From Candidatus Accumulibacter cognatus (GTDB lineage: Bacteria; Pseudomonadota; Gammaproteobacteria; Burkholderiales; Rhodocyclaceae): DNA of 64,000 bases. The number at the start of each line of letters is the position of its first letter. Within the stretch, counting starts at the first letter, position 1. The position numbers and the translations under genes are program-made. Shown in pieces: positions 9,235 to 28,462 of this stretch. The stretch is from contig CP058708.1 in NCBI GenBank assembly GCA_013414765.1, positions 677,553 through 741,552 on the forward strand. The letters run 5' to 3'. The notes below the pieces were generated by a model. That model had not been told where the DNA came from and did no database searches. It saw nothing but the letters and a program-made list of their open reading frames with translations.

Positions 9235-9852
9235 TCAAAGAACGTAAAACAGGACCGCAAAGTAATGGGCCGCGCTGCCGGCCATCACGAACAGGTGCCA
9301 GACACCATGCGCATGCCGGAGACGGGTGTCGAGTACATAGAAGACGATCCCGCCGGTGTAGAAAACACCACCCGCCGCCACCCACGCGAAGCCGGACACT
9401 CCCAGCGCCTCCAACATCGGCACCAGCGCCACCACGACCGCCCAGCCCATCACGATGTAGATCACCATCGACAGGGTGCGCGCTTCGCTGCGCATGCACA
9501 GTTCCTGTACGCCGCCGAGCAGCGCCAGCCCCCAGACGACAGCCAGCAAGGACCAGCCCCAGGGACCGCGCAAGGTGACGAGACAGAACGGGGTGTAACT
9601 GCCGGCAATCAGCAGATAGATGCTCTGGTGGTCCAGCTTGCGCAGGATATCCTTGGCACGCCCACGAAAGCTGTGGTAGAGCGCCGAAAAGCTGTAGAGC
9701 AACACCAGCGTCGCACCATAAATCGAAATGCTGACCATCTTCCACGCATCGCCGCTCCGTGCCGCCAGGACCACTAGCACGGCCGTACCAGCGACCGCCA
9801 GAATGGCCCCGACCAGATGTGTCCAGGCGTTGAATTTTTCCCCGTAGTACAT
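9235..9852 (-). CDS. Hemolysin III family (PAQR-like) membrane protein
   Basis: 205 residues with about seven membrane segments. The metal-site residues of the HlyIII/PAQR superfamily are visible: Ser and His in FSALYHSF, Asp in RKLDHQSIY, and H-x3-H in HGVWHLFVM. The ATG at 9852 is chosen because GGGGGAA lies eight bases upstream and the protein then begins MYYGEKFNAWTH, as in the family; the frame is open to 9921. Bacterial members are often called hemolysins, but their physiological role is unsettled. It faces the SCO gene tail to tail. Confidence 0.88.
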   Translation of the reverse strand: MYYGEKFNAWTHLVGAILAVAGTAVLVVLAARSGDAWKMVSISIYGATLVLLYSFSALYHSFRGRAKDILRKLDHQSIYLLIAGSYTPFCLVTLRGPWGWSLLAVVWGLALLGGVQELCMRSEARTLSMVIYIVMGWAVVVALVPMLEALGVSGFAWVAAGGVFYTGGIVFYVLDTRLRHAHGVWHLFVMAGSAAHYFAVLFYVL

Positions 9853-9898
9853 ATGGAATTCCCCCGCGGGATTTGTCTCTATTGCGTGAATCATTCTA

Positions 9899-9946
9899 AC
9901 GGTCATGACTTTTTCAGGCATCCCCGATCATGAAAGTCATGACCGT
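9899..9946. repeat. 14-bp perfect inverted repeat upstream of the HlyIII gene
   Basis: ACGGTCATGACTTT (9899-9912) pairs with AAAGTCATGACCGT (9933-9946) across a 20-base spacer. Each arm contains the palindrome GGTCATGAC. It lies just upstream of the HlyIII start, so it could be an operator or a small transposable relic. Confidence 0.6.
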
Positions 9947-10424
9947 CTCTCTCCCCCGATCCCTCCCCCGCAAGTGGGGAGGAGAGATTCGCGAGTCGCT
10001 GACGCGACTTTCACATTCACCTGTTGAAAGCGGCTGGAAAATCGATGCGGCGGCATAGGATGGCAGCCCACATCGCTTTCACCGATGTACCTGACGCGAT
10101 GGAGACGGAAATCCGTGGTCGCCGCGCTCGCAGGCCATTCCGTCTTGCTGCAGTGGCCTGCACGGCCACTCCCGACCTTTCAGGCCAATCTGGGTCGAGT
10201 ACGGCGCCGAAGTCTGGATGCGCACGTGCATCCCACCCCAAACCAGTCCGCTCGAATCCTTCGATGAGCCCGAGGATGGACGCCTGCTGCTTGTCGAAAA
10301 AAACTTCCCTGTCGCCTCCATTACCCTGCGGTGGTCTACCTCCTGCCTGGAGTTTCCAGCCCGTATCTCTCCAGAACAGGGTTGCCGGCAGCCGGCAATC
10401 CGCGGCAAGGGAAGATTTTCGGAT
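9947..10424. other. Non-coding stretch before the cytochrome b operon
   Basis: About 480 bases without a convincing gene; several overlapping open frames on both strands show no recognisable protein. A small hairpin, AGTCGC-TGAC-GCGACT, occurs near 9995-10010. The promoter of the next operon begins at the right edge. Confidence 0.4.
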
Positions 10425-12694: not shown

Positions 12695-14611
12695 ATGGTC
12701 AAACTCCTGCAACAATTCCTGCGCTGGCTGTTCATGCGCATCGAGAACGTGTTCAACGTCGCCTTCGGCGATAAGATGAACCCTTTCTATCATCTGGGAA
12801 CGATCAGCTTCTGGCAGTTCTGGTTGCTGGTGGGCTCCGGCCTCTACCTCTACATCTTCGCCGATACCGGCGTCCATGACGCTTTCGAGTCGGTCGAGCG
12901 GATTACCCACGACCAGTGGTGGGCCGGCGGCATCCTGCGCAGCATCCACCGCTACGCGACAGACGGCATGATCCTGACGATGCTGCTGCACATGCTGCGG
13001 CACTTTGCCTACGACCGCTATCGCGGTTTTCGTTCGTTCTCATGGCTGACCGGCGTGGCCCTGTTGTGGCTGGTTTACATTGCCGGCGTCAATGGCTTCA
13101 TGCTGGTGTGGGACAAGCTCGCGCAATTCGTGGTCATCGCCACTGCCGAGTGGTTCGATGTCCTGCCGATGTTCAATGGCACGCTGATCCGCAACTTCCT
13201 CTACCTCGAGAGCGTCAACAGCCGCCTGTTCACGCTGCTGGCCTTCATCCATATCGGCGCGCCTTTGATCGTCGCATTCATCATGTGGGTACATGTCCAG
13301 CGCGTCCCGCGCGCGCACATCAATCCGCCCCGTCCGATCGCCATCGCGGTCAGCGTCATGTTTCTGGCACTCGCGCTGGTCAAGCCAATCCTCAGCCAGG
13401 GTGGCGAAGCCGACATGTCGGTGGTGCCGACCGACATCGACTTCGACTGGTTCGAGTTGCCGGTGCTGGCGCTGGTCTACGTGATCAATCCGCTGCACCT
13501 CTGGTACTGGGTGCTCGGCCTCACGGCCCTGTTCTTCCTGCTGCCCTGGTTGCCACCAAAGCGCCTGGGTTCGGCGAGGGCACAGAATTCGATCACTTTT
13601 CACCCCGACCAGAAGGCCATCAGCGCACGCTTTGGCGAAACTCTGCTCGACGCTGGCCTGCGCCAGGACATCGATCTGCCCTACGAATGCCGTAACGGCG
13701 GCTGTGGCGTCTGCAAGTGCACGGTGCTGCAGGGCAAGGTCGATCCCGGACTCTACCAGCCGAGCGCGCTTTCCGCCGCCGAACTGGCGCAGGGCAAGGT
13801 CCTGCTGTGCTGCGCCAGCGCGCTCGAAGACGTCGAAATCGAGTACCAGGCGAGCACGGCGCCGAAAATTCTCCGGGAGTACAGCGCCCGCGTCGTCGGC
13901 ATGGAGAAACTCACCGACGACGTCATGCGTGTTCTGCTCAAGCTCCCGGAAGGGCAGCGGATTGCCTTCAAGGCCGGCCAGTACATCAACATCCTGCTCG
14001 AAGACGGTCAGCGGCGCGCCTTCTCGTTTGCCAATCCGCCGCACGAAGCCGAGTTTGTCGAACTGCAGATCCGGCTGATGCCCGGCGGACGTTTTACCAC
14101 GTACGTCTTCGAAGCGATGAAAGTGGGCGACCCCGTCCGTTTCGAAGGCCCGATGGGCGACTTCACGCTGCGCGAGTCCGCGCGGCCGATCGTCTTCGTC
14201 GCCGGCGCCACCGGCTTCGCACCGGTCAAGAGCATGGTCGAGGATGCCTTCAGGCGCGGGCTGCAGCGCCAGATTTATCTCTACTGGGGGGTGCGCAGCC
14301 GCAAGGATCTGTACCTGCCCGATCTGCCGGAGCAATGGGCGCGCGAGCACGAAAACTTCCACTTCGTTCCGGTCCTCTCGGATCCGGCCCCCGACGATTC
14401 CTGGAGCGGCCGCACCGGCCTGGTTCATGAAGCGATTCTCGAAGACTTCCCGGAACTCAAGGAACACGAAATCTACGCCTGCGGCTCGGTACGCATGGTC
14501 GAGGCGATCTTCCCCTTCCTCAAGAAGCACGGCGCCGAAGACGGCGCCTGCTTCTCGGATGCCTTCAGCGTATCGGCGCGTTCAATGGCCTTTCAACCCC
14601 GCCAGAAGTAG
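12695..14611 (+). CDS. Cytochrome b fused to 2Fe-2S ferredoxin and FAD/NAD(P) oxidoreductase domains
   Basis: 638 residues. The N-terminal 270 are cytochrome b-like, with histidine pairs 85/99 (SIHRYATDG, LLHMLRHF) and 186/200. A plant-type ferredoxin follows (about 290-380) with C-x4-C-x2-C in YECRNGGCGVCKC and a later CC. Then comes a ferredoxin-NADP reductase unit: FAD site RRAFSFANPP, nucleotide site VFVAGATGFAPVKSM and C-terminal YACGSVRMVEA. It could pass electrons between NAD(P)H and quinone. As I recall, such a fused cytochrome was proposed in the first Accumulibacter metagenome to let the TCA cycle run without oxygen. It follows the preceding gene by 119 bases and may share its operon. 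Confidence 0.9.
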   Translation: MVKLLQQFLRWLFMRIENVFNVAFGDKMNPFYHLGTISFWQFWLLVGSGLYLYIFADTGVHDAFESVERITHDQWWAGGILRSIHRYATDGMILTMLLHMLRHFAYDRYRGFRSFSWLTGVALLWLVYIAGVNGFMLVWDKLAQFVVIATAEWFDVLPMFNGTLIRNFLYLESVNSRLFTLLAFIHIGAPLIVAFIMWVHVQRVPRAHINPPRPIAIAVSVMFLALALVKPILSQGGEADMSVVPTDIDFDWFELPVLALVYVINPLHLWYWVLGLTALFFLLPWLPPKRLGSARAQNSITFHPDQKAISARFGETLLDAGLRQDIDLPYECRNGGCGVCKCTVLQGKVDPGLYQPSALSAAELAQGKVLLCCASALEDVEIEYQASTAPKILREYSARVVGMEKLTDDVMRVLLKLPEGQRIAFKAGQYINILLEDGQRRAFSFANPPHEAEFVELQIRLMPGGRFTTYVFEAMKVGDPVRFEGPMGDFTLRESARPIVFVAGATGFAPVKSMVEDAFRRGLQRQIYLYWGVRSRKDLYLPDLPEQWAREHENFHFVPVLSDPAPDDSWSGRTGLVHEAILEDFPELKEHEIYACGSVRMVEAIFPFLKKHGAEDGACFSDAFSVSARSMAFQPRQK

Positions 14612-14734
14612 GGCCGCAGACCTGGCGCCGGCGCTCACGATGGCATCTTCCGGAAGGATTGGCCAGTTGCCGGACATCTGATCGCCAGGGCAGAGCCCGC
14701 GGCCAGGAGTCGTCCGAGCCCGGCGAAAACCCGC

Positions 14735-15589
14735 TCAGCCCTGGCCGCGTCCCGCGGCCAGGGCGACGCCACTCCGCGGCGCCGGCCACTCCGTGGCCCC
14801 GGCCGGGCTCGTGGACCTCAGGGCAAAGCGGAAACCGACGCGCCGGGTGGCGCCGTCGGGCGCGTTGGCGCAGCGGTATGCTGAGCGGGCGTTCCCGGCG
14901 TCGTTGATCCAGGAGCCGCCGCGCAGCGCGCGCTCGGCAACACCTCCCCCACCCCCAGACGCGTCGGCACACCATTCCCAAACGTTGCCATGCATCTCGT
15001 ACAAGCCCCAGGGATTGGCCAGCAGGCTCCTGACCGCCACCGTCATCATCCGCGCCCCTTTGTCCGACCAGTAGTTCACCTCCTCGCCGGTGATCGTTTC
15101 GCCAAAGCTGTACGCGGTCCGGGTTCCGGCCCGGCACGCGTATTCCCACTCGGCTTCGCTAGGCAATCCGGCCGCCGCGCCGGCCGTGAAGGCTTGCAGG
15201 CGAACCAGGAAGCCCTCCGGCGGCAGAACGACGTCGTTCCAGCTCACCCAATCGACCGGATGTTGCGGAGATCCCGGCTGCTCGCTGTTGCGCTCGTTGA
15301 AGTGGCTCGGGTTATTGCCCATCACCGCCTGCCACAGCGCCTGCGTGCAGGCGGTGTCGGCGAGCCAGAAACCGCTGGCGATCGTCGTCGGCACCTGCCG
15401 CTCGGGCTGGCTCTCGTCGCCCATCCGGAAGTGGCCGGGTTCGATCCAGCGCAGGCGCTGCACCTCGGTGGCCACCCGCAGCTCGGCCCAGACGCCGTAG
15501 CGATCGTCGCCCCAGGCGCTCGCCCAGGGCGGCGGAAACGGATCGGGGCCGCGACGCTGCCAATCGGCAAGACTGAAGACGGCACTCAT
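14735..15589 (-). CDS. DGR target protein 1: FGE/sulfatase-modifying-factor-like protein
   Basis: 284 residues. The formylglycine-generating-enzyme-like fold (C-type-lectin relative) covers about 45-265: FRMGDESQPER, FWLADTACTQALWQAVMG, GLPSEAEWEYACRAGT, GLYEMHGNVWEWCAD, then ERALRGGSWIND and GFRFALRS. The last block is variable repeat 1. Such proteins are common DGR targets, where the fold shows variable residues as a ligand surface; enzymatic formylglycine formation is not implied. The start ATG at 15589 overlaps the preceding stop (ATGA), so it is translationally coupled to the broken reverse-transcriptase ORF. Confidence 0.88.
   Translation of the reverse strand: MSAVFSLADWQRRGPDPFPPPWASAWGDDRYGVWAELRVATEVQRLRWIEPGHFRMGDESQPERQVPTTIASGFWLADTACTQALWQAVMGNNPSHFNERNSEQPGSPQHPVDWVSWNDVVLPPEGFLVRLQAFTAGAAAGLPSEAEWEYACRAGTRTAYSFGETITGEEVNYWSDKGARMMTVAVRSLLANPWGLYEMHGNVWEWCADASGGGGGVAERALRGGSWINDAGNARSAYRCANAPDGATRRVGFRFALRSTSPAGATEWPAPRSGVALAAGRGQG
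14738..14764. repeat. Hairpin beside variable repeat 1 (DGR cruciform candidate)
   Basis: A perfect 12-bp stem, GCCCTGGCCGCG (14738-14749) and its complement (14753-14764), with a TCC loop, lies about 50 bases past the coding-strand end of VR1 at the gene's 3' end. In the Bordetella phage DGR, a hairpin just after the variable repeat promotes retrohoming. The same loop occurs in the two hairpins beside VR2. Confidence 0.7.
14817..14943 (-). repeat. DGR variable repeat 1 (VR1)
   Basis: 127 bases matching the template repeat at 15778-15886 except for an 18-nt block that the template lacks and about ten point differences. On the coding strand all but one of these (GCG to GCA) fall on template adenines: template AAC codons became ATC, TAC, TGC and CGC; AGG became GGG; CAG became CGG; GAC became GTC. 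Adenine-specific change is the signature of DGR mutagenic retrohoming. The invariant end is GGTTTCCGCTTTGCCCTGAG. Confidence 0.92.
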
Positions 15590-16248
15590 CGCGACGCCAG
15601 GGCGGGCGGCGACCCGGGGAGCTGTCGCGTCAGCGCTGCTGCGCCTTCACTACCGGCACCCCGGGAGCCTTCGAGTTTGGAGGGCGGCCGCAGTGCCACC
15701 GCCACCGGAAACGGCGCCTGGTCCATCGGCAGCGGCAAATCCATGCCGGGGTGTTGCCACACCCGTCGCCGGTCGAGCTCAGGGCAAAGCGGAAACCGTC
15801 GTTCTGGTTGGCGTTGCGGTTCGCTGAGCGGGCGTTCCTGGCGTCGTTGTTCCAGGAGCCGCCGCGCAGCGCGCGCTCGGCAACACTTTTTGCCTTGCAG
15901 GCAAGCGGCGCTGTTCACAGGGTAGCCGCACCACCACAGGATGTCGTCCATGTAGCGCAGCTGCGCACGCACCCGGCGATCTTCGAGCAGCCATCGATCG
16001 GCCACGTCGAGGTAGGCGTTGGCAAAGTGCTGCGAAGTCAACGAGCCGATCGGCAGAGCGCGCCCGGCCGCCCCGCCCGCGTCGATGATCCGCCCGAGCA
16101 GGGCGAGGAAGCCATCGCCCTTGAAGCGCCTCGCGAGCAGCGCCTTCAGGCGGGCGTGGTCGATGCTCGGAACATGGGCATTCAGTTCGTCCTGTGCCGC
16201 ACGGCCGTCGAGCGCGTGGATGGCGAAAAAGTGTAGCTCGCTGCTCAT
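15586..16248 (-). pseudogene. Truncated DGR reverse transcriptase ORF containing the template repeat
   Basis: The 220-codon ORF begins with about 23 residues (MSSELHFFAIHALDGRAAQD) resembling the start of the small HRDC-type accessory proteins beside some DGR reverse transcriptases (tentative). It then jumps into the middle of a DGR reverse transcriptase: PSIDHARLKALLARR, LPIGSLTSQHFANAYL and the catalytic YMDDILWW. The first catalytic Asp segment and the thumb are absent, so it should be inactive. The rest of the frame runs through the template repeat and unrelated sequence. It starts at an ATGA overlap with the gene upstream and ends in an ATGA overlap with the gene downstream. Confidence 0.82.
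15778..15886 (-). repeat. DGR template repeat (TR), with an internal 18-nt deletion
   Basis: 109 bases matching VR1 and VR2. In the VR reading frame it is rich in AAC codons (SWNNDARNARSANRNANQND), the usual adenine-rich design. Both VRs have 18 extra bases at the point corresponding to 15806/15807. The missing block is what recombination between two GCCAAC direct repeats would remove. The template therefore cannot have produced the present VRs in its current state. It lies inside the broken reverse-transcriptase ORF. Confidence 0.9.
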
Positions 16249-19052
16249 GTTCGTCCTCGGTCAAAAGGGTCAGGAAAACTCGTTGCAGCCCCCGTCCCGG
16301 GGGCTGCAACGGTGCCGCGTCCCGCGGCACCGTCCACGCCGCTCCGCGGCGCAGGCCACTCCGTGGCCCCAGCCGGGCTAGTGGACCTCAGGGCAAAGCG
16401 GAAACCGTCGTTCAGGTTGGCGTCGTCGGGCGCGTGGGCGCTGCGGATCGCAGAGCGGGCGCCCCTGGCGTCGTTGATCCAGGAGCCGCCGCGCAGCGCG
16501 CGCTCGGCAACACCCTCGCCTTCCGGACCGCGAGGATCGGTCTCGTCGCGCGCCACATACTTGCGTTGCCCGTCGGCACACCACTCCCAGACGTTGCCGT
16601 GCATTTCATAAAGTCCCCAAGCGTTGGCCGGCAGGCTGCCGACAGGAACCGTTGATTCACGGTAGAGGCCCTTGCGGCCGCCAGCATAAGGGTAATTCCC
16701 ATCGTAGTTCACCTGCTCGGGAGTGATCTGGTCGCCGAAGTGGAAGGCAGTGCTTGTGCCGGCACGGCAGGCGTATTCCCACTCGGCCTCGCTCGGCAGG
16801 CTGGCGATCGCCCCCGGCAGCCGCTGTTCGAGCGCGCGCAGGAAGCGCTGCACGTCGTTCCAGCTCACCTGCTCGACCGGATGCTGCGGGCCGCCGCCGC
16901 TCTTCAGTTTGAAATAACTCGGGTTCTTGCCCATCACCGTTTCCCAGAGCGCCTGCGTACAGGCGGTGTCGGCCAGCCAGAAACCGGCGCTCAGGGTCAC
17001 CGAATGCTGCGGGTCTTCGTCGTCATCGCGCTCTGGCTCGGATTCTGGCGACCCCATCCGGAAGTGCCCGGCCTCGATGTAGCGCAGGCGCTGGACGACG
17101 GCTTTCGCGCCAGCCGAAGCCTTGCGCGCCTGGCCTGGTATTTCGACGATCGCGTAGAGGCCATGCGCGTCGCGGCCGATTTCCTGCGCCCAGGCGGGGC
17201 GTTCGACGCGGCCAACGAGGTAGCTGTGCTGGCCGGCGGTGACGGTCAGCGGTCTGTCCGGGTCGGCGAGACTGGGGAGCGGCGCGACGAGCTGCGGCCG
17301 GCCCGCCGGGTCGGGGTCGAGCACGCGCGTCGGCCCGCCCTCGCTGACCAGCAGCCGCCTCGCCCGCAACGGCGAGCCGAGGCGCGAATGCGCCGGGCCG
17401 GCCGGGCGCTCGCCGCCGCCGAACAGCACCAGGCCCTGCGCCTGCACGCCCAGCTCGCAGGCGAGCAGCGGCAAGTCGCCGCGTTCGCTGATCGCCTGCA
17501 ACAGGTGTTCGGGCCGCAGGCCGGCGGGCGCGGTCTTTTCGCCGCTGGCGACCCAGACCGGCGACAGCGCCCGCGAGTGGGCCTGCAACCAGGCGAAGTC
17601 GGCGGCGTTGCGCGCCAGCAGGTCGCGCGCGTACTGGCGCAGTTGCGGATCGGTGCGCCCCGCCTGGCTGGCCCTGGCGCCGAGGGCGGCGAACCAGCGT
17701 TCGGCTTCGGCGATGCGATCGGCGGCGTCACGTTTCGCCTCGTCGCGGGCGTGCGCCTGCCAGACCAGGAGCTCGGTGGCTTCGGTCGCCCGCCCGCGCC
17801 AGGCGTGGATGTGCAGCGTCTGCTCGAGTGCCGCGAGTTGCTCGGCCGCCGCGAGTTCTTCGAAATCCTGGCGGTAGCGCGCGACATGCGCGGCGGCGAC
17901 GGCGCGCGAAACGAGGCTGTCGTAGACCACCGGCGGGTGGTTCCAGACCAGCGCTTCGAGCGCCGGTTCGTTCGCCGTCGCCGGCGTGATCCCGCGCAGC
18001 GCCCGCAACAGCACCGGTTCGACGCGGATGCAGCAGGCCATGCGCGCCAGCAGCCGTTCGCGCAGAACCGCCAGGCGTTGCCGTTCGGCCTGCCTTTGCT
18101 CCTCGTCGGCAAGGCGGCCGCGTTGGCGGCGCAGGTCGCCGCGCGGCTGCAGGCAGAACACGCGCGCGCGGCGCGCGAGTTCGACCTCGATCTGCGCCGG
18201 CGCCAGCGGCGCCCAGAACACCGGCTGCGCGCCGCCGGCGACGAGATGGCGCGCGAAGTCGCTCCAGTCGCGAATCGCCTGGGGCCAGCCGGCGAGCGCG
18301 CCGGCGTCGGAGAGGATCAGCACGCGGCTGCCGGGCGCCGGCAGCGGCATCGCCGCGGGCGCCCGGCAGGTCGCAGACGGCGGCACCGGCCAGCGCTGGC
18401 GGATCTGCTGCGGGCTGCCATCGACCAGCCACAGCGTACAGCCGGCGTCACCGCGCTGCTGCCGCAGTTCGGTGACGATGGCGGCGAAGTCGTCCTGGTA
18501 GGGTTGCAGATGCCGCGCCCAGTCCCAGACGACGAGCAGTTCGCCGCCCCAGGTCGCCTGCCGGGCCGCCGGCAGCCGCCGAACCGCCTGCGCGCGCGCC
18601 AGTTCGCGCAGCAGGCGTGGCAGGTCGACGCCGCGCCGGTGGACTTCGAGCAGCGAACGCTTGAGCGCCGGCCACAGGCGCGTGCGGCGAACCAGCGGGA
18701 CGAACGGCGCCGCTTCGCCGCGCTGCGCGCGCGGCAGGCATTGCGCGTCGGTCAGCGGCTCGGGTCTGGCCGCTGCACTCGCTTCGGCTGGCTGTTCGAG
18801 GCGGCGGCAAGCGGTGATCGCGAACAGTGGTGCCTGCAGGCGGTCGGCGGCAAGTGAGCTCCCCGGCGGGCCGGTGAAGCCAACGCCGTGGGCCATCACC
18901 TGGAGTGCGACCGACGCGAAGCCAAACACCGCCGCCGGCCGCTCGACGAATTCGAGCCGCCCGGCGTAACGCCGCTGGCGCTCGTCGTCGTCGCCGGCGA
19001 GCGCCAGCGCCTGCAACAGATCGGCGCGCGCGAGCTGCGGCTGCCGCTTCAT
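16245..19052 (-). CDS. DGR target protein 2: large MoxR-partner protein with C-terminal FGE-like domain
   Basis: 935 residues. The start ATG (19052) overlaps the stop of the MoxR gene as ATGA; the frame is open much further, but that part overlaps MoxR. Residues about 170-300 (LLVVWDWARHLQPYQDDF, RVLILSDAGALAGW, PVFWAPLAPAQIEVEL) look like a Rossmann-type, possibly vWA-like domain. A helical middle follows. From about 655 the FGE-like fold runs: FRMGSPESEPERDDDEDPQH, GFWLADTACTQALWETVMG, LPSEAEWEYACRAGT, GLYEMHGNVWEWCAD and variable repeat 2. MoxR plus vWA-type partner plus effector recalls the ternary NTP-dependent conflict systems described by Aravind and colleagues. Here the sensor would be fused to the partner. 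Confidence 0.82.
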   Translation of the reverse strand: MKRQPQLARADLLQALALAGDDDERQRRYAGRLEFVERPAAVFGFASVALQVMAHGVGFTGPPGSSLAADRLQAPLFAITACRRLEQPAEASAAARPEPLTDAQCLPRAQRGEAAPFVPLVRRTRLWPALKRSLLEVHRRGVDLPRLLRELARAQAVRRLPAARQATWGGELLVVWDWARHLQPYQDDFAAIVTELRQQRGDAGCTLWLVDGSPQQIRQRWPVPPSATCRAPAAMPLPAPGSRVLILSDAGALAGWPQAIRDWSDFARHLVAGGAQPVFWAPLAPAQIEVELARRARVFCLQPRGDLRRQRGRLADEEQRQAERQRLAVLRERLLARMACCIRVEPVLLRALRGITPATANEPALEALVWNHPPVVYDSLVSRAVAAAHVARYRQDFEELAAAEQLAALEQTLHIHAWRGRATEATELLVWQAHARDEAKRDAADRIAEAERWFAALGARASQAGRTDPQLRQYARDLLARNAADFAWLQAHSRALSPVWVASGEKTAPAGLRPEHLLQAISERGDLPLLACELGVQAQGLVLFGGGERPAGPAHSRLGSPLRARRLLVSEGGPTRVLDPDPAGRPQLVAPLPSLADPDRPLTVTAGQHSYLVGRVERPAWAQEIGRDAHGLYAIVEIPGQARKASAGAKAVVQRLRYIEAGHFRMGSPESEPERDDDEDPQHSVTLSAGFWLADTACTQALWETVMGKNPSYFKLKSGGGPQHPVEQVSWNDVQRFLRALEQRLPGAIASLPSEAEWEYACRAGTSTAFHFGDQITPEQVNYDGNYPYAGGRKGLYRESTVPVGSLPANAWGLYEMHGNVWEWCADGQRKYVARDETDPRGPEGEGVAERALRGGSWINDARGARSAIRSAHAPDDANLNDGFRFALRSTSPAGATEWPAPRSGVDGAAGRGTVAAPGTGAATSFPDPFDRGRT
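16282..16333. repeat. Two tandem hairpins beside variable repeat 2
   Basis: Hairpin A: 13-bp perfect stem GTTGCAGCCCCCG (16282-16294) and complement (16298-16310). Hairpin B: 11-bp perfect stem ACGGTGCCGCG (16309-16319) and complement (16323-16333). Both have a TCC loop, as does the hairpin beside VR1. They lie about 55 bases past VR2 inside the end of the target gene and are candidates for retrohoming cruciforms. Confidence 0.7.
16387..16513 (-). repeat. DGR variable repeat 2 (VR2)
   Basis: 127 bases aligned to the template repeat. Outside the 18-nt block missing from the template, all differences lie on template adenines: AAC to ATC (twice), GGC, AGC and CAC; TCA to TCT; CAG to CTG. The changes differ from those of VR1 at most sites, but both share SWIND where the template has SWNND. 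The flanks beyond the repeat are nearly the same in both target genes, including TSPAGATEWPAPRSGV downstream. Confidence 0.93.
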
Positions 19053-20059
19053 GACGCCGCCGGGTTGCCTTTGGCGGTCGCCGGCGGCTGCTGCGCGAGC
19101 TGCGGATCGCCCTCGACGATGTTCTTGTGGAAGACGTAACGCCCGAGCCGAGCGAGCCATTCCATTTGGGCATTCTCGTCCCCCGGCGCCAGGCGGCGCA
19201 GTGCGGCGAGCAGGTCGATGTATTCGGCAAGGCCGGGCGCCGGCACGCCGGCGGCGACGGCGTGCCGGCGGTCTTCGGCGAGCTGCACGGCGGCGGTCTG
19301 CAGCACTTCGTCGCCGAGGCAATCGTTCGCCGGCCGCTCCGCGCGCGCGCCGAAATGCGCCTGCCCGCGCTTGACGAGGAAGCGGGGGTAGGGTTCCTCC
19401 GGCTCGAGCGTGAGCACGACGCAGCGGCGCAGGAAAGCCGCCGGCAGCTCGCGCTCCTCGTTGGTGGTGATCAGCACCAGCGGCAGGCCGTGCGTCGGCC
19501 GGATCGCCGTGCGCGTCACCGGGTTGGGAAACTCGCGGCTGCCGAGAACTTCGAGCAGGCTGTTCGGCAGGTCGCTGTCGGCCTTGTCGATTTCGTCGAT
19601 CAGGATGACATGGCCGCCGGGTGCGGGCTGCGCCTCTGCTTGCTGACTGGCGGCCGACGGTCCGTAGGCCTGCGCGCCGGCCCAGTCGAAAGCGCGCCAG
19701 AACGGTCCCGGCAGCCAGTAGTGCGCGTCGTCCCGGATGCCGCCACCGGCAAACCCGGCGGCCTGCGCGTCGGCGAGCCGGCGGACCGCGTCGAAGCCGT
19801 GGAAAAGGTCCGATGCCTCGCAGCGCGGGCTGACGGTGACCGGGTGCAGATGCCAGCGCAGCGCGACCGCAGCGGCCCGCGCCAGTTGCGTCTTGCCGGT
19901 ACCCGGTTCGCCGCGCACCAGCAGCGGGCGTTCGCAGGCCAGCGCCAGATGCAGCGCGTCGATCTCGTTCTGCGACCATTGGTGGAAGGCGCCGTTGTCG
20001 AGCGCGGTAATCGCGTCGTGCTGGAGGTCTTGCAGGAGCTGCTGGATGTTGTGTTCCAT
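19049..20059 (-). CDS. MoxR-type AAA+ ATPase
   Basis: 336 residues. Walker A is G50-EPGTGK-T57, Walker B VILIDEID (151-158) and sensor 1 VLITTNEE (about 192-199), in the order typical of MoxR ATPases. Such ATPases remodel partner proteins, usually vWA-domain proteins encoded beside them. The gene ends in an ATGA overlap with the large target protein, so the two are made together. It follows the TIR gene by 47 bases. In ternary conflict systems the MoxR unit is thought to control activation of the effector; that role is inferred here from context. Confidence 0.88.
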   Translation of the reverse strand: MEHNIQQLLQDLQHDAITALDNGAFHQWSQNEIDALHLALACERPLLVRGEPGTGKTQLARAAAVALRWHLHPVTVSPRCEASDLFHGFDAVRRLADAQAAGFAGGGIRDDAHYWLPGPFWRAFDWAGAQAYGPSAASQQAEAQPAPGGHVILIDEIDKADSDLPNSLLEVLGSREFPNPVTRTAIRPTHGLPLVLITTNEERELPAAFLRRCVVLTLEPEEPYPRFLVKRGQAHFGARAERPANDCLGDEVLQTAAVQLAEDRRHAVAAGVPAPGLAEYIDLLAALRRLAPGDENAQMEWLARLGRYVFHKNIVEGDPQLAQQPPATAKGNPAAS

Positions 20060-20106
20060 GGGTTTGCCTTCGTGTGATGCAAGAACGTCGGGTTAAGCCC
20101 TGCGGG

Positions 20107-21558
20107 CTAAGCCGACCCGCGATTCTGCTTGAGACGCTTGAGAATGTAATCGGTGATCAGCCGGGTGGAATTGGGCGCACGACAGTTGTGGACGCCGTCT
20201 ACTGTAGGAAAGACACCCTCGACCTTTACGTCGTCGAACCGACAAAGCATCACTCCATTTTCCCCACCGCTATTGCGTCTCTCACGGATGGCTCGCCATT
20301 CCACTTTGCACCATCGCTTTTCCTGATACTCCGCGGACAAGAAGGCGACAGCCAGATCGGATTGACGCTGGTAGACCTTCTGGAGCAGTGTGTCCATATT
20401 GTCTACGGTTGTCCGGGAGATGTAATCCTTGTAATAGAACACCGAACCCTCTCCGAGCTCCCCTTCGAGCGCCCGAGCAATCTCCTCGACGTACGCGCAC
20501 TGCTCGTCAGCGAAGGAGAGGGCGACGCGAAAATGCATCTCCCTCCGAGGGTGAGAATCTCGATCGTCGCCGCCCTGCGGATAGATCAGATCAAACAGAT
20601 TGTCGAGGTAATGCAGCAGGTCGTTCTGCAGGCTGGCCTCCTTCCACGCCGCTGCTCGCTGCGGCTCCAGGAGCGCCGATGCGGCACGATCGTAGAGGAA
20701 GGTGGCGACGTCAAAGCGCCTGGCAAAGGCGCGCCGCAACGCCGGGTCGTCCAGGGGGTGAGGCTCCTGCGCTGCCAGTCCAAACATCAGGCGGGCGCCG
20801 TGGTCATCTTCGTACTGGTCGAGCCCTTCCTGGAGGACTTCATCCGATGGCAGGCCACCACGGTCCTGAATTTCCTTCAGGCGCGCCGGCCGATCGAACG
20901 AAACCAGCGTCGGGTCTTGGATTGCGGCATTGACCATCGCTTGCAGCTCCGCCTTGACGCACTGCTCGGCGCCAAGGAAACCGTATTCTAGCGGCGCCGC
21001 GTGCTGCGGCATGACGTTGACCGCGCGCGCCCGCCGCGTCGCCTCGTCGAAGCGAATTCTGACGCCCTTTCCCGACCACACGGCGGCAATCAGGGCCGCG
21101 GCCAGTGGTTTCGTCGCGTCGATCAACATGCCCTCGACCGGCACGGCACGTCCAATGACCTTGTGCTTGCGAGCCTTGGCCAGCACATGGCTCTCGCAGG
21201 CAACCAGGCACAGACCGACCACCACCTCACGCAAGGCGTCCGGGATCACGCGCGCGGCTTGGCCGGCGCCGTGCAGCTTCGGGACGAGACCGAGGATCCG
21301 CCCCAGCAGGCGTACCGGCGCTTTCGCTTCGCGCAGCAAAAGGCCGAACAGCGCTTCGGTATCGTCAACAACCGCCGTCCCGAAGGTCGCCGCCCAGGCC
21401 CTGGCAAAATCCTGCCAGAGCACGTCATCACGAAGCGTCCGCAGACGCTCGAGCAGCTTCTCCTGCAGGCGACTTCGGCTGCTACCGGCGGTCGTCTTCA
21501 AAGCGACTTCAACGGCCCTTCTGATAGGTGCCGACCAACTGCGCTTCTGCAACGACAT
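20107..21558 (-). CDS. TIR-domain effector protein of the conflict locus
   Basis: 483 residues. The C-terminal TIR domain covers about 341-478: FRVALSFADEQCAYVEEI, the VFYYKD loop, SDLAVAFLSAEYQEKRWC, and Glu420 in CKVEW, the place of the catalytic Glu of NAD-degrading TIRs. The N-terminal 340 residues (including WQDFARAWAATFGTAVVDD) are mainly helical and I do not recognise them. The gene lies upstream of MoxR on the same strand and likely supplies the toxic output. The chosen ATG overlaps the end of the PEBP gene by 50 bases; a start about 20 codons later is possible. Confidence 0.85.
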   Translation of the reverse strand: MSLQKRSWSAPIRRAVEVALKTTAGSSRSRLQEKLLERLRTLRDDVLWQDFARAWAATFGTAVVDDTEALFGLLLREAKAPVRLLGRILGLVPKLHGAGQAARVIPDALREVVVGLCLVACESHVLAKARKHKVIGRAVPVEGMLIDATKPLAAALIAAVWSGKGVRIRFDEATRRARAVNVMPQHAAPLEYGFLGAEQCVKAELQAMVNAAIQDPTLVSFDRPARLKEIQDRGGLPSDEVLQEGLDQYEDDHGARLMFGLAAQEPHPLDDPALRRAFARRFDVATFLYDRAASALLEPQRAAAWKEASLQNDLLHYLDNLFDLIYPQGGDDRDSHPRREMHFRVALSFADEQCAYVEEIARALEGELGEGSVFYYKDYISRTTVDNMDTLLQKVYQRQSDLAVAFLSAEYQEKRWCKVEWRAIRERRNSGGENGVMLCRFDDVKVEGVFPTVDGVHNCRAPNSTRLITDYILKRLKQNRGSA

Positions 21559-23224: not shown

Positions 23225-23494
23225 TCAGGCCGCCAGCCTGCGTTTGAGAAGCCGCATCAACCAGCCGATTCCGGGAAGCCTGGCGTACAGTTCTTCGGTG
23301 GCGTCCCAATAATAATCGCGGTGCCAGCTCACCTTGCCTGAGCCTCGATGCGCAGGTGCGTGCGACGCTCTGCGAAGCACTTGCGGCGACGCCGTCTTCC
23401 CCAAGCCCTGCGAGCGGATAGTGCAGCTCCCATCACAGCAACGCACTGTTGTTTCGTTTCCCTCGACCTGAACTCCACGTGCGACAGCTCTCAA
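23225..23494 (-). other. Doubtful ORF, possible gene fragment
   Basis: An 89-codon frame beginning with a TTG that overlaps the helicase stop. The first 50 codons look random. The last 35 (SWHRDYYWDATEELYARLPG, then IGWLMRLLKRRLAA) have more protein-like character and could be the end of a lost gene. No family recognised. Confidence 0.25.
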
Positions 23495-26400
23495 TCTGCG
23501 GGTGGCTGAAGTGAAATCAGCCAGTTGGCAAAATCCGCCGACTCATGATTAGCGCTCTGGCCTAGGCTAAACAGCAGGTCCTCCTGGCGGGGTTGACCGA
23601 AAACCATCCGATAGAGAGCCAACCCCTGCTTCAGCTGTTTGAGCTTTCCAACGTCCTTGCTGTATGGGAGCAGGGGAATGCGGCGCTCCACCCGTGCGGA
23701 ACCATCCTCGAAGATCCAATACGGGATCAGATCAGAATATCCAATTGGTTTGCCTTGTGCAGCGATCTGGAAAAGGGCCTGCCACGGATCGCTACCCTCA
23801 AGATTCTCAGAGAGAGCGGTCAGACCATACCGTTCAGCAACATTCTTTCTGACCGCATGGCCCTTATAGCGATGAACACGGCCTTCGCGTTGTTCAAGAT
23901 CAACGGGATTGGAAGGCAGGTTCCAATGGACCACCGCATGGCACCAAGTGTGGAAGTCCAACCCTTCCTGGCCAATTGAAGTCGACGCCAGAACGAAGGG
24001 GCGAAACGGTGAATTGAAGGCATCCCTCACCGCGTCGGCGCGAACGAGAGCCTGGTCATTGTCGTCTCGAATATCCCCGAATCGGAGCGCAAATCGACAG
24101 CGGATATTGAAATCATCACGAGCAAAGCCGTCTCCCGACTTCTTTATTTCATCGATTCGAATCTGTGCTGTCCGTAGTGACAACACAGATTGGATGCACT
24201 CGGCGATGCCAGCGACCTGTTCTTCCAAGGAATGTTCTTGGAGACCCAAAGATTCTCGAAGGACATGCACATATTCGTCGAGCACCGATTGGAGATTGCC
24301 ATCGATACCGTACTGAAGCGTCAACCTCCAATAAGTATCCTCGCCGGAGCCTCGCAGCATGGCAATTGTCTCCGGCATATTGAAAAGCGATCGGAAGCCG
24401 GATGCGATTCTGGCTGCGGCAGACAGAAGGTTCGGATCGGATGGGTCGAGTTCGGCACCGATACGACGAAGTGCTCGCAAAGCACATACGCCAGGACCGG
24501 CAAGAGCCAGATCGCAAAGCACATCGACCAGATCATCCGGCTGAGGACCGAGAGGAATTTTGCCCTCCGCCATGCTGACCAGCAGGTCGATGTGATCTTT
24601 GAAACAGGTGCCTGATTCCTGATCCGGTGTAGCGGATCTCCATCCTGAATGGCTCTTACACCAGTCCAACAACCCTTTATGAGAATCGAGAAGAATGGGA
24701 GCCGCCCAATACCATCGTTCATCAGCTCGCGCCCCTTCCTCTGCACCAGGCAGGGTCTCGACCAAACTGCGGCAAATAGCCTTGACCTCGTTTCTCAGTT
24801 CCTGGGCGTCCAACGGTCCGCTCCCACGACCCAGAGCAATCTCGAGCGGATCAATCTTGGTGGCAAGTGTTGGGGACGGCAGCAACCAGGAAATAACCGG
24901 CATACCAGTCAGGCGATTATCGTTTGAGGCCACCGCAAACCGCAGCAATGGCTTGATCTTGTCGTAGAGTTCGCTGTGGGAAACCGAGGTCCCGGCAATC
25001 ATTTTCCGTTCGGCTTCGTAGGAGCAGATTGACGCGACCGCGTCTGGAACAGCACTCCAAGAGGAAAATACAAGGGCCTTGGTCAAGCCATCCTTATCCT
25101 GGTATGCGCCACCAGGCTTGATGTACGGCATGGACGGCGGCATCCATAAAAGCTGCCACATGCCCTTATCAATCGTATCTTCGAAAAGTACGCGCATCCT
25201 CGGATTGGCAGGATCGAGAGCCTGATAGGCTTGCAGTTTGTCCTTCGTCAGCAACTGCCCATTTGCCGATGAAAGAATTCCGCGAAGAACATCTGAAGGG
25301 GCATTCAACTGGGCATCCAGCTTATGCCTCAGTTCATAATGTTTCAGGAAGTTGATCAGGTAAGGCGCAGATTTCCAGTATTCAATTGGTTCCCCGGCCT
25401 TGACGCAGATTGCCACCGCGTCAACCGTCGCGGCGTGCTGAATATCCGCTGGCGTAAGGGGTGCCATCCGTTCAATCTCGGTAAGCATTGAGTTGTGATC
25501 ACGAGTCGTCGCTACTCGCTCCGTTCGGCACATGACTTTCAGGAGGGCTCGTTCAAGTTCAGCCTTTTCCCCCGGCTGACATGCCGAGCCCTTCGCACAG
25601 GCGTGAAGCGTCGTTCGATGTTCTGACAAAAGACTTTTGACCTCATCGACCTTGCCGGAATCATTGAAGAGGAAGTTCAGTGTCCTGATGAAATCTGGAT
25701 AGTGGTCGTCTTCGTCATTCTCCTGGTCGAGGGTGAACATCTTGTAGGGCGTCGCGGAAAGCAGGAGAACGCGAACCTCGGGATGTTCAAAGAGCGCGGT
25801 CGCGAGCATGGAGGCTTCGTCATCGCCATCCAGCAGGTGCTTGAATCGTTGGAACTCATCAAGGATGACCAGATCGGGCTCAAGCGCGGAAAGGCACACT
25901 GAAGCCAGCTTGCTTCTGAGTTTTCCGATCAGGTCGTAGCGACGACCGGAGTCTTCCGGGGGAATTCTGCTGTAGTCCCGGTAACGAGCAAAGCGTTCAC
26001 AGCCTTCCTTCAAGGCCGCATACAGTTCGGCATCCTCAAGAACTGCCTGGCGGAAGGCCTTGGAAAGGTCTGCATCAAGATCCTCTGCTGGGAGGTTTTT
26101 GGCCTTGGCTCGCCAGTTATCCTTACCTGCTGTTGCCTGAAGAATGTTGAGGAGGCCTACGCGCAGCCGTCTGCGCCGTTCATTTTGCGCCAGAGGCAAG
26201 TCGTACAGCATCCGATAGAGGATCGCCCGTTCGTCGGCATGCCCGCCTCGACTGCGGGCATGGTCGAAGGCCGTACCGGGCGTCAGGCTGATGAAATTTA
26301 CCTTGTTCTTTCGCAGCGAGCGTACTTGCCTGGGCAGGTACGTCAGTCGCGTAGCGATTGAAAAACCATCCGTGTCGCTGACATTGAGCCGATTGACATT

Positions 26401-26655
26401 CTGTGTTGCTATGGCGGCATTGGAACAGATGTAGATCACATCGACCCGGCCCACCTTGTCTTGGAGGTGCTCCAAGGTCTTGGCGATGATTCCCCGGGCG
26501 ACAAGCGTTTTTCCGAGTCCAACTTCATCGGCGATCAGAAAACGGGAAGTTGGGTCATTGCCATAGAGCCGCTTGAAGACGTACTCGACGCTCTTCCTCT
26601 GGAAATCTTTCAGACCGGCCAAGGCGAGAGCTGATAAAAAACGGTTGCTATGCAT
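23491..26655 (-). CDS. SF2 helicase of the defence-island operon
   Basis: 1054 residues, a large superfamily 2 DNA translocase or helicase. Motif I is ADEVGLGKTLVARG, motif II is LDEFQRF (DExQ), motif III is LLLSATPYKMF, and the C-terminal RecA-like domain has STSIGQEGLDFHTW and QREGRVHRYKGHAVRK (motif VI). Long insertions lie between the two halves. The ATG at 26655 overlaps the PLD gene stop by eight bases, so the two are coupled. It is the last clear gene of the operon. Pairing a helicase with a PLD-like protein recalls DISARM and Mokosh, but their other genes are missing. Confidence 0.88.
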   Translation of the reverse strand: MHSNRFLSALALAGLKDFQRKSVEYVFKRLYGNDPTSRFLIADEVGLGKTLVARGIIAKTLEHLQDKVGRVDVIYICSNAAIATQNVNRLNVSDTDGFSIATRLTYLPRQVRSLRKNKVNFISLTPGTAFDHARSRGGHADERAILYRMLYDLPLAQNERRRRLRVGLLNILQATAGKDNWRAKAKNLPAEDLDADLSKAFRQAVLEDAELYAALKEGCERFARYRDYSRIPPEDSGRRYDLIGKLRSKLASVCLSALEPDLVILDEFQRFKHLLDGDDEASMLATALFEHPEVRVLLLSATPYKMFTLDQENDEDDHYPDFIRTLNFLFNDSGKVDEVKSLLSEHRTTLHACAKGSACQPGEKAELERALLKVMCRTERVATTRDHNSMLTEIERMAPLTPADIQHAATVDAVAICVKAGEPIEYWKSAPYLINFLKHYELRHKLDAQLNAPSDVLRGILSSANGQLLTKDKLQAYQALDPANPRMRVLFEDTIDKGMWQLLWMPPSMPYIKPGGAYQDKDGLTKALVFSSWSAVPDAVASICSYEAERKMIAGTSVSHSELYDKIKPLLRFAVASNDNRLTGMPVISWLLPSPTLATKIDPLEIALGRGSGPLDAQELRNEVKAICRSLVETLPGAEEGARADERWYWAAPILLDSHKGLLDWCKSHSGWRSATPDQESGTCFKDHIDLLVSMAEGKIPLGPQPDDLVDVLCDLALAGPGVCALRALRRIGAELDPSDPNLLSAAARIASGFRSLFNMPETIAMLRGSGEDTYWRLTLQYGIDGNLQSVLDEYVHVLRESLGLQEHSLEEQVAGIAECIQSVLSLRTAQIRIDEIKKSGDGFARDDFNIRCRFALRFGDIRDDNDQALVRADAVRDAFNSPFRPFVLASTSIGQEGLDFHTWCHAVVHWNLPSNPVDLEQREGRVHRYKGHAVRKNVAERYGLTALSENLEGSDPWQALFQIAAQGKPIGYSDLIPYWIFEDGSARVERRIPLLPYSKDVGKLKQLKQGLALYRMVFGQPRQEDLLFSLGQSANHESADFANWLISLQPPAD

Positions 26656-28462
26656 CACGCCCCCCGATGGCAGATTCAAAAACCGTCCAGAGGTTTAAAA
26701 AATCCTCGGGGATAATTGCATTTGGGCTTCCCTGGGACAGATCGCGAACCAGTCCCGAGACTTCCGCCAGTCTCTCCGGGTGTCGGCTGTACGTTCGGAT
26801 CAGATCTTCCAGTAGCGGGATATCCTCACCGTTGGCCAACCGGGCCAACCATTTGGCAAACCCGGAGCCACTCCCGGGATCAAGTCCGGATACCTTATCT
26901 TCACCCAGCAACAGCAGGAGATAACGCAGGAATCCCTCCTGATTGCTGATCACGCTTTGCAGGATGGCGGAGTGACGCTCTTCTGGAACGCCGATAACGG
27001 GAATATTCAGAACAAACCTAGCCGTGACATCCGGATGGTTGGTCTTGAGCTCAAACGCGATGAGGCCCGTTACAGAAGAAGCGGAGAACTCTCCGAGCCT
27101 GATCCCGCCATGAGCATCACTGTCCAGGATGTCCACAGCAAACTCTCGAGTAACGGTTATCGGCCATGCGGAAGCACTGACGATCCCCTCAAGGGAGGGG
27201 ATTTCGCCCGACAAAACCAATGCCCAAAGGCCGTCCTTTGATCCCGGGCTGCATTCGATAGACAGAGCTACTTCAGCTATCCGGGAGCGAGCCCGTTCAA
27301 CGGATTCCTCAGCCGCCTGCCGGAGCGCATCAACCTCTGCTTCCTTGCTCGTGTCGAAGTCGACAAGATATTCACCTAATCCGTCAGCACCAAGAAGTTC
27401 GTCGATGCCGCCGACTTTGCTCTTCCGGCCAACCAGCTCGATCAGAATCTCGACATTCTTCGATGCATTCAGCGCTGCGTTGGTCGCATTCGCGGACCCC
27501 ATGATCACATGGGTGTAGTCGGAATAGTACCGGGTCTCAAACAGATAGACCTTTGCATGAAGACCGGTCGCAAGCGGCTGCTCGGTGGCATCGTCTTCCT
27601 CGCCATCCTCGGTTTCCGCCGCGTCGTCCAGATGAAGACATTGTGTGAAGAGATCCAGTGTGTCCTTCTTCAGGGCGGACAAGGACTCCGGGCGTGAGAT
27701 GAGAGCATCTGCGGCCTTGGTTTTTCTCGTCAATGCTCGCAGGGCCTCATCAGAACAGAACGGCGAGATGACGGCCATCCGGTTCGCCGTGGGAGGCTCC
27801 CAGTCAAACCCTTTTGTGCCCGGAAGATAGAAGGTCAGCTTGTCAAAGCCGCCAGGGAGTTCCCACTGGACTCGATGCAGCTCGTCCGCGAATCTGAGAG
27901 CTTGTTCGCTCCTGTCCGGTTCTTTTGTTCCGAGGGCCAGATCAGGAAGCGTCTTGAAGAAATGCGCCAGCGGTTTATTTGATTTGGACTGCCGGCCTGC
28001 AATCGTCCCCTCGAGCTGAAGTGACAGGTCCCATGACTGATCGGTGGTCATATTTCTCGTCATGACCACCAGGCGATACATCGCGTTGCTTTCATCAGGG
28101 CTGACAAAACGGATTGCCCATACTTTCGGATGAAAAACGCCTCCGCCGGGGGCCGTTACCTCGACAACCATTTCCTCCAGAAACCCGAACAACGGGTTGG
28201 GCTTGGCAATTTGGGGCACTTGAATCCGTCCTCGTTGTACATAGACGGTGATTCGTTTCGAGTACCTGCGGATGGCTTCAAGCACAGACAACGGGTCAGG
28301 ATCGGTCTGACCATCCGCCGCCATTAACGCCAGATAGACAGGAGCCTCAAGCAGCAGGACTGGGTCCATCGAAAAGGTGGTCGCAACTGCCTCGGCGAAA
28401 ATCATCCCCGCCGGTGGGGTCAATGCAGAGGTATAAAGGCTCCGGGAGTTTGGGTTCAGCAT
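26648..28462 (-). CDS. PLD-like (HKD) protein of the defence operon
   Basis: 604 residues. Two HxK motifs are present: VFHPKVWAIRF with a later TRNMTTDQSWD, and GLHAKVYLFE with MGSANATNAALN. This is the two-half active site of phospholipase-D-fold nucleases. The ATG at 28462 overlaps the DUF6361 stop by seven bases; the frame is open to 28561 but those residues overlap DUF6361. A nuclease function is inferred; the C-terminal half (about 380-604) shows no recognised domain. Confidence 0.85.
   Translation of the reverse strand: MLNPNSRSLYTSALTPPAGMIFAEAVATTFSMDPVLLLEAPVYLALMAADGQTDPDPLSVLEAIRRYSKRITVYVQRGRIQVPQIAKPNPLFGFLEEMVVEVTAPGGGVFHPKVWAIRFVSPDESNAMYRLVVMTRNMTTDQSWDLSLQLEGTIAGRQSKSNKPLAHFFKTLPDLALGTKEPDRSEQALRFADELHRVQWELPGGFDKLTFYLPGTKGFDWEPPTANRMAVISPFCSDEALRALTRKTKAADALISRPESLSALKKDTLDLFTQCLHLDDAAETEDGEEDDATEQPLATGLHAKVYLFETRYYSDYTHVIMGSANATNAALNASKNVEILIELVGRKSKVGGIDELLGADGLGEYLVDFDTSKEAEVDALRQAAEESVERARSRIAEVALSIECSPGSKDGLWALVLSGEIPSLEGIVSASAWPITVTREFAVDILDSDAHGGIRLGEFSASSVTGLIAFELKTNHPDVTARFVLNIPVIGVPEERHSAILQSVISNQEGFLRYLLLLLGEDKVSGLDPGSGSGFAKWLARLANGEDIPLLEDLIRTYSRHPERLAEVSGLVRDLSQGSPNAIIPEDFLNLWTVFESAIGGRDA

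What the first reader, a model, noticed from the sequence alone, without database searches (positions are those of the whole stretch)
14735..19052. Diversity-generating retroelement with one template and two diversified FGE-like targets
Template repeat 15778-15886 aligns to two variable repeats (14817-14943, 16387-16513), each at the end of an FGE/C-type-lectin-like gene on the same strand. On the coding strand all mismatches but one fall on template adenines, and the two variable repeats differ from each other at most of these sites. This shows past adenine-specific mutagenic retrohoming into both genes. Codons hit are mostly AAC, as in known DGRs.
Basis: seen in the sequence. Interest (0 to 1): 0.9.

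Follow-up and report, generated by a model that had tools for sequence, protein, structure and literature searches.

The report
Broken mutation engine beside immune receptors
A sludge bacterium carries receptor-like genes that were once scrambled on purpose by a built-in mutation machine, but the machine has since been broken by deletions, so the receptors are probably frozen; worn-out copies of this kind are already known.

Summary
The repeats are real. One template repeat (TR) matches two variable repeats (VRs), and mismatches sit almost only on template adenines: VR1 10 of 21 A sites against 1 of 88 others, VR2 7 of 21 against 0 of 88. Past adenine-directed retrohoming is well supported. 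But this is not a working DGR. The ORF holding the TR is wreckage: about 23 codons of an HRDC accessory gene fused to RT residues 141-221, without the motif-A catalytic region or the RT's ends. The TR is 18 nt shorter than its VRs. The same locus is intact in another species of the genus. A third target lies 0.93 Mb away. The genome keeps an intact related DGR at 216 kb whose template does not fit these VRs. The neighbours look like a MoxR/TIR conflict system. Degenerate DGR loci, and multiple DGRs in Accumulibacter, are in print (PMC10907252). Extra: by my classification 7 of 17 comparable RT loci in the genus are damaged, and a covarying RNA element follows the TR and recurs in other proteobacterial DGRs. 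New member of a known kind.

The parts
14735..15589 (-). VP1, target gene with FGE-sulfatase / C-type-lectin domain
   Evidence: PF03781 2e-29; profile of 13 relatives matches T. denticola variable protein 1 (2y3c) at 2.9e-41
14817..14943 (-). VR1
   Evidence: 10/21 A and 1/88 non-A mismatches to TR
14740..14816 (-). stem-loops with GGA triloops after VR1
   Evidence: two perfect stems of 6 and 12 bp by the scan; fold z -1.30, not significant
15586..16248 (-). remnant ORF: HRDC start, RT middle, TR, then the flank; its stop overlaps the VP1 start (ATGA)
16177..16248 (-). start of the HRDC accessory gene (about 23 codons)
   Evidence: 95.7% identical to residues 1-23 of the L075 HRDC protein; alignment limits
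15927..16170 (-). RT remnant, L075 RT residues 141-221; has YMDD, lacks DVDGYF
   Evidence: PHROG 1423 reverse transcriptase 8.5e-23; 90.6% DNA identity to L075
15778..15886 (-). TR, 18 nt shorter than the VRs
15605..15724 (-). conserved RNA element 3' of the TR
   Evidence: covariation in 17 loci; 86.7 bits with model R1, of which the window is a training member
16245..19052 (-). VP2, target gene: N-terminal half possibly vWA-like, C-terminal FGE domain
   Evidence: PF03781 4.2e-45; weak vWA fold matches on a low-confidence model
16387..16513 (-). VR2
   Evidence: 7/21 A and 0/88 non-A mismatches to TR
16270..16386 (-). tandem stem-loops with GGA triloops after VR2
   Evidence: three perfect stems of 6, 6 and 14 bp; DNA fold z -6.97
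19049..20059 (-). MoxR-like AAA ATPase
   Evidence: AAA_5 1.9e-13, bpMoxR 7.7e-7
20107..21558 (-). TIR-domain protein, putative effector of the same operon
   Evidence: PF13676 6.2e-9

Best explanation
A degenerate DGR locus of the HRDC-accessory type inside a MoxR / vWA-like-FGE / TIR operon of a Candidatus Accumulibacter genome. Shown by sequence: an adenine-directed process copied the TR into the ends of VP1, VP2 and a remote third gene; later deletions removed most of the accessory gene, the RT outside residues 141-221, and 18 nt of the TR. Inferred: with no working RT at the locus and no other fitting template found, the VRs are now frozen, while the target genes, still open, act as fixed receptors. 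The deletions look like slippage between short direct repeats.
For: A-site bias. Intact orthologous loci L075 (complete: VP2, HRDC, RT, full-length TR, VP1; its TR differs from its two VRs at 17/27 and 15/27 A sites and 0/100 others) and L076 (HRDC, RT with both motifs and full-length TR; contig starts inside VP2). Against L075 the window lacks 836 nt (6 nt in their place) and 438 nt (7 nt in their place) across HRDC, RT and flank, and 18 nt of TR. Direct repeats lie at or near the ends in L075: CCCAGCATCG and TGGTGCG, and GCCAAC 18 nt apart in the TR. All three VRs that match this TR keep the 18 nt, and in a reconstituted BPP-1 DGR 18 missing target nucleotides were restored from the TR (PMC12875486, passages). 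Other TRs compared in this genome mismatch VR1 and VR2 at 25/78 (216 kb), 23-24/73 (4.50 Mb) and 29-32/73 (3.83 Mb) non-A sites, against 0/78 for the 216-kb TR and its own two VRs. No second copy of this TR among the nine DNA matches.
Against: No reads or strains: present activity was not measured. The RT remnant has low pairwise omega (0.17 over 81 codons), lower than VP1 or VP2; the window branch shows 6 nonsynonymous: 5 synonymous changes against 2: 8 on the L075 branch, p 0.18, so relaxation is not shown. The TR-flanking RNA element and a 65%-identical intact RT at 216 kb are still present, so trans use cannot be ruled out. The slight excess of nonsynonymous change in VP1+VP2+MoxR outside the VR on the window branch (78:57 against 60:74, p 0.04) could mean the receptors too are losing constraint.
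Confidence: 0.9

Rival explanations
1. Active in trans: the intact RT and HRDC gene at 216 kb (or another RT of the genome) reverse-transcribe the window TR and still diversify VR1-VR3.
For: An intact RT and HRDC gene are in the genome, and the window TR keeps the 3' RNA element also found at 216 kb. [quoted passage not shown]
Against: The 216-kb TR does not fit the window VRs (25/78 non-A mismatches), and none of the three VRs matching the window TR has its 18-nt deletion.
Confidence: 0.07
2. Population polymorphism or assembly error: other cells of the species carry the intact locus and this genome happens to show a broken variant.
For: Intact and disrupted variants coexist within aggregates of Thiohalocapsa (PMC10907252). 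Only one genome per species was available to me.
Against: Several separate lesions, with base differences at the junctions, in a one-contig genome listed as 100% complete; six further damaged loci in the genus.
Confidence: 0.15
3. Ordinary duplicated FGE genes with chance or gene-conversion similarity, no retroelement involved.
For: VP1 and VP2 are paralogous outside the VR too.
Against: A-site bias at p 8e-8 and 4e-6, an RT remnant beside the TR, and an intact DGR at the same place in a sister species.
Confidence: 0.01

Closest known systems
Degenerate DGR loci of Thiohalocapsa PB-PSB1 (Dore et al. 2024, PMC10907252; abstract, two of three parts of Results and one of two parts of Discussion seen)
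   Same: Several related DGRs in one genome, some complete and some with machinery missing or pseudogenised; targets with C-type-lectin domains in putative conflict systems; Accumulibacter named as having multiple related DGRs
   Different: There decay is ascribed to transposons and MITE-like arrays; in the window no transposon was seen at the breakpoints, only deletions, including one inside the TR
Treponema denticola HRDC-type DGR (PMC4891356, passages)
   Same: HRDC accessory gene, FGE-like targets, remote targets, isolates that keep targets after loss of RT and TR
   Different: There the accessory gene lies between TR and RT; here the order is VP2, HRDC, RT, TR, VP1 (in the intact ortholog)
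BPP-1 DGR of Bordetella phage (PMC3240598 and PMC12875486, passages)
   Same: TR/VR logic; hairpin after the VR; structured RNA 3' of the TR
   Different: Avd instead of HRDC; one hairpin with a 4-nt GRNA loop against tandem GGA triloops; different gene order and 3' RNA
MoxR-vWA ternary conflict systems (Kaur et al. 2020, PMC7159879, passages)
   Same: MoxR ATPase beside a large FGS-domain protein, TIR domain, DGR association
   Different: The third core component was not identified here and the vWA domain is only weakly indicated

Membership tests
Functional DGR | TR and VR differing mainly at TR adenines | tested here: met
Functional DGR | VR at the 3' end of a C-type-lectin-type target gene | tested here: met
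   VP1 and VP2
Functional DGR | IMH / IMH* difference downstream of the repeat | tested here: met
   CTGAGGTCC after both VRs, CTGAGCTCG after the TR; the role is recalled from BPP-1 work
Functional DGR | complete RT with motif A and YxDD | tested here: not met
   only residues 141-221; motif A absent, YMDD present
Functional DGR | complete accessory gene (HRDC or Avd) | tested here: not met
   about 23 codons left
Functional DGR | TR and VR of equal length so that retrohoming keeps the reading unit | tested here: not met
   TR 18 nt shorter
Functional DGR | ongoing A-site variation in the population | not testable with these tools
   no reads or strains of this species
Degenerate DGR locus (sense of PMC10907252) | TR/VR present with key machinery missing or pseudogenised | tested here: met
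MoxR-vWA ternary conflict system | MoxR ATPase next to a vWA protein | tested here: inconclusive
   MoxR-like met; vWA only by Foldseek matches at E 6e-3 and weaker on a model of mean pLDDT 59.8
MoxR-vWA ternary conflict system | third core protein (VMAP, iSTAND, FtsH or beta-propeller) | not tested
   no targeted search made; neighbour 20107-21558 matched only TIR_2 in Pfam
DGR RT clade 5 | phylogenetic placement of the RT | not tested
   no tree built; the label is from PMC10907252, which names Accumulibacter among organisms with several related DGRs

The most novel reading that the evidence does not exclude
Lock-in of receptors: in this genus, lineages repeatedly lose the RT core, often by frame-preserving deletions, while keeping targets, TR and the RNA element 3' of it, so that a useful diversified receptor becomes fixed while other DGRs of the same genome stay active; and that RNA element is the recognition part that defines this DGR type.
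Probability: 0.2. Interest if true: 0.75.

Novelty: new member of a known kind. Interest (0 to 1): 0.5.

Why it matters
A clean TR/VR pattern in a genome does not mean a working mutagenesis system: the same locus is intact in a sister species and broken here. Accumulibacter genomes hold several related DGRs in states from intact to nearly erased, a natural series for asking when and why bacteria stop diversifying their putative defence receptors. The covarying RNA element beside the TR offers a way to find this DGR type without the RT, including loci whose RT and TR are gone.

Tried and rejected
Plain duplication was rejected. Diversification from another template of the genome was rejected for the three other TRs compared (216 kb, 3.83 Mb, 4.50 Mb); other DGR-like places (583 kb, 4.07 Mb, 4.55 Mb) were not opened. 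A second copy of this TR was sought with window:15700-16000 in the one-contig genome: nine matches, no full-length second TR of this type among them; matches 215-217 kb and 4.50 Mb belong to other DGRs. The idea that the window and L192 share RT breakpoints was dropped: L192 is rearranged around a transposase-like gene and resumes at a different residue. The structure model of VP2 (935 aa, 11 sequences) has mean pLDDT 59.8 and gives only a hint of vWA. Query RT_9 was out of frame; its rows are ignored and repeats the search without it. RT-remnant relaxation is not significant (p 0.18), and that four fused deletions keep frame (about 0.012 if each had one chance in three) was noticed after the fact. 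A conserved small protein downstream of the TR was considered; the same stretch is better explained by RNA structure, but a coding role is not excluded.

Literature: DGR + Accumulibacter, 3 papers; listing mostly unrelated; no paper in the listing was on both DGRs and RAYTs. Roux et al. 2021 was not read.

Full report
WHERE. The window is G000:C1:677553-741552, strand +, in a 5.17 Mb one-contig genome listed as 100% complete. Its genus is Candidatus Accumulibacter: same-genus contigs G006:C68 and G023:C63 have the lengths (23,551 and 46,245 bases) and the same RNA-element sequence as the named Accumulibacter records behind L110 and L117. Everything discussed reads on the minus strand.

OBSERVATION. 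TR 15778-15886, VR1 14817-14943 and VR2 16387-16513 are confirmed. TR against VR1: 10 of 21 A sites and 1 of 88 others differ; against VR2: 7 of 21 and 0 of 88. A third repeat at 1.62 Mb, in another FGE-like gene (L010:7416-8312), differs at 14 of 21 and 4 of 88. Between species the orthologous VRs differ at 16 of 27 and 19 of 27 A columns against 4 and 3 of 100 others. Omega between the window and L075 is 0.31 (VP1) and 0.38 (VP2) outside the VR and 7.7 and 7.2 inside it.

The TR is 109 nt, the VRs 127 nt. The TR lies inside ORF 15586-16248, whose protein begins like an HRDC accessory protein and goes on as the middle of an RT. In a species of the same genus (G027:C141, locus L075) the locus is whole: VP2, HRDC gene (PF00570 2.8e-19), RT (PF00078 1.1e-10), full-length TR, VP1; its TR differs from its VRs at 17/27 and 15/27 A sites and 0/100 others. 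G011:C53 (L076) also has complete HRDC and RT genes and a full-length TR; its contig begins inside VP2. Against L075 the window lacks 836 nt (6 nt in their place) from HRDC to RT residue 140, 438 nt (7 nt in their place) from RT residue 222 into the TR flank, and 18 nt of TR. The RT segment left, residues 141-221, keeps YMDD but not DVDGYF. In L075 direct repeats lie at or near the ends of the lost pieces: CCCAGCATCG, TGGTGCG and GCCAAC in the TR.

CONSEQUENCE. The three VRs that match this TR all keep the 18 nt. In a reconstituted BPP-1 DGR 18 missing target nucleotides were restored from the TR, and inactivating RT, Avd or TR lowered repair to about 1e-9 (PMC12875486, passages). I infer that no retrohoming from this TR has left a mark on these VRs since the TR deletion. 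The intact DGR at 216 kb (L009) matches its own two VRs with 0 of 78 non-A mismatches but the window VRs with 25 of 78; the TRs at 4.50 and 3.83 Mb mismatch VR1 and VR2 at 23-32 of 73. Against my reading: the RT remnant shows low omega (0.17 over 81 codons) and no significant relaxation on the window branch (p 0.18), so either the decay is recent or that segment is still constrained.

SURROUNDINGS. MoxR-like ATPase, VP2 with an FGE domain, and a TIR protein recall the MoxR-vWA ternary conflict systems of PMC7159879 (passages), which PMC10907252 links to DGR targets (abstract). The vWA call is weak and the third core protein was not searched for. VP1, VP2 and MoxR frames are open.

GENUS-WIDE. 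The L075 RT was searched in 28 genomes of the genus. I classified 17 loci as this RT lineage: near full-length hits of 56% identity or more, and fragments beside an HRDC gene and TR. Left out: contig-edge fragments (G015:C100, G027:C7), the 40%-identical G019:C56, and the remaining hits, mostly under 45%, which I take for other lineages. Ten look intact: L009, L075, L076, L079, L198, L199, L200, L202, L203, L204. Seven are damaged: the window; L078 (HRDC start fused to RT from residue 67); L190 (RT 1-41 + 216-323); L191 (RT 1-135 + 240-334); L192 (RT about 135-223 only, YMDD now RMDD); L193 (RT 186-323 only); L201 (full length but YMDH). In four (window, L078, L190, L191) the pieces are fused in frame. 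TR and VR lengths disagree in four of the seven (window TR -18, L078 TR -6, L190 TR +9, L191 VRs +6 nt) and in none of the ten (one length in L193 was misread by the script because of an inner GFR). In G001 (L077) both target genes remain, but no RT or HRDC match was found, only a 44-nt TR piece, and a transposase-like gene (Y1_Tnp 4.8e-4, below the curated cut-off; the name RAYT is recalled) sits between inverted repeats. L192 has a similar gene inside HRDC/RT.

TARGET HAIRPINS. 28 of 41 VRs and 0 of 19 TRs are followed within 170 nt by a perfect stem of at least 6 bp with a GGA triloop (recounted by hand after moving three TRs that the script had labelled VR: L009:8351, L193:6457, L203:5735). 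VR loci without it include L011, L197, L203, L076 and the 1.62-Mb VR3. The published phage consensus is a 4-nt GRNA loop (PMC3240598, passages).

RNA ELEMENT. Between the TR and the downstream target gene the 17 loci share a covarying structure: 22 pairs, 94.4% of cells paired, 14 pairs with changes on both sides (3 of 500 shuffles reach this), covariation score 0.534 against 0.213 +/- 0.022 shuffled (0 of 500) and at most 0.154 when slid; the number of further pair types is not exceptional (28 of 500). Much of the covariation separates two groups of loci, so independent events are fewer than cells, and the structure was derived from the same sequences. Single-sequence folds are mostly unremarkable (z -1.69, -0.19, -3.01, 0.50). 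The model, run over 85 sources (84 of the 212 loci then held, plus the window), gave 10 matches at E <= 2e-4 and one at 0.61. One is the window; L110 and L117 duplicate training members; the others are L010, L114 (Accumulibacter), L115 (Zoogloea), L126 (Rhodocyclaceae), L132 (Chromatiaceae), L118 (Methylomonas), L119 (Gammaproteobacteria) and, weakly, L113 (Magnetococcales). A TR-like sequence starts 123-145 nt upstream in 8 of the 10 non-window matches, not in L010 and L132. In a second run of 23 loci all 16 training members and L010 matched; L011, L077, L194, L195, L196 and L197 did not, so the other DGRs of this genome (3.83 and 4.50 Mb) lack it. In the own genome it occurs three times: 216 kb, window, and 1.62 Mb, where no RT match and no TR were found. 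Rfam has no match at gathering in 13500-20500. A structured spacer 3' of the TR that recruits RT-Avd is known for BPP-1 (PMC12875486); I infer that this is its counterpart.

VERDICT. Real repeats, right family, wrong state: a decayed DGR locus. Degenerate DGR loci are in print (PMC10907252), so this is a new member of a known kind. The RNA element and the extent of decay in this genus I did not find in the searches or the passages read.

Noticed in passing
window 15605-15724 (-), 16 other training loci; L010, L114, L115, L118, L119, L126, L132: Covarying RNA element 3' of the TR with conserved GGTAG...CGA parts, no Rfam family at gathering; recurs in other Beta- and Gammaproteobacteria.
   Followed up: partly
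window 14740-14816 and 16270-16386 (-); 28 of 41 VRs: Stem-loops with GGA triloops, often in tandem, follow VRs but none of 19 TRs.
   Followed up: partly
window 15586-15589 and 10 further loci of the 17: A frame open through the whole TR ends in a stop that overlaps the start of the downstream target gene (ATGA in 7 loci, TGATG in 4), as in translational coupling; long chance ORFs are common in this GC-rich DNA.
   Followed up: partly
L077:7123-7647, L192:2495-2995, L076:1875-2402, L078:6067-6414, L011:9143-9634 and 9772-10284: IS200/RAYT-like transposase genes recur in DGR loci of this genus, twice in place of RT and HRDC parts.
   Followed up: partly
G000:C1 about 216, 583, 1621-1623, 3830 and 4500 kb: The same genome has further DGR loci: intact at 216 kb and, by RT and TR/VR, at 3.83 Mb; TR, two VRs and RT-like pieces at 4.50 Mb; two orphan VR genes at 1.62 Mb; two VR-like matches at 583 kb not opened.
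   Followed up: partly
window 20107-21558 and L075:8628-10118: The TIR proteins at the same place in the two species share their N-terminal stretch but differ strongly elsewhere, as if the effector had been exchanged or had diverged fast.
   Followed up: no
window 23491-26679 (-): Helicase-like protein with a near full-length PADLOC ZacC match (1210 bits) close to the conflict operon.
   Followed up: no
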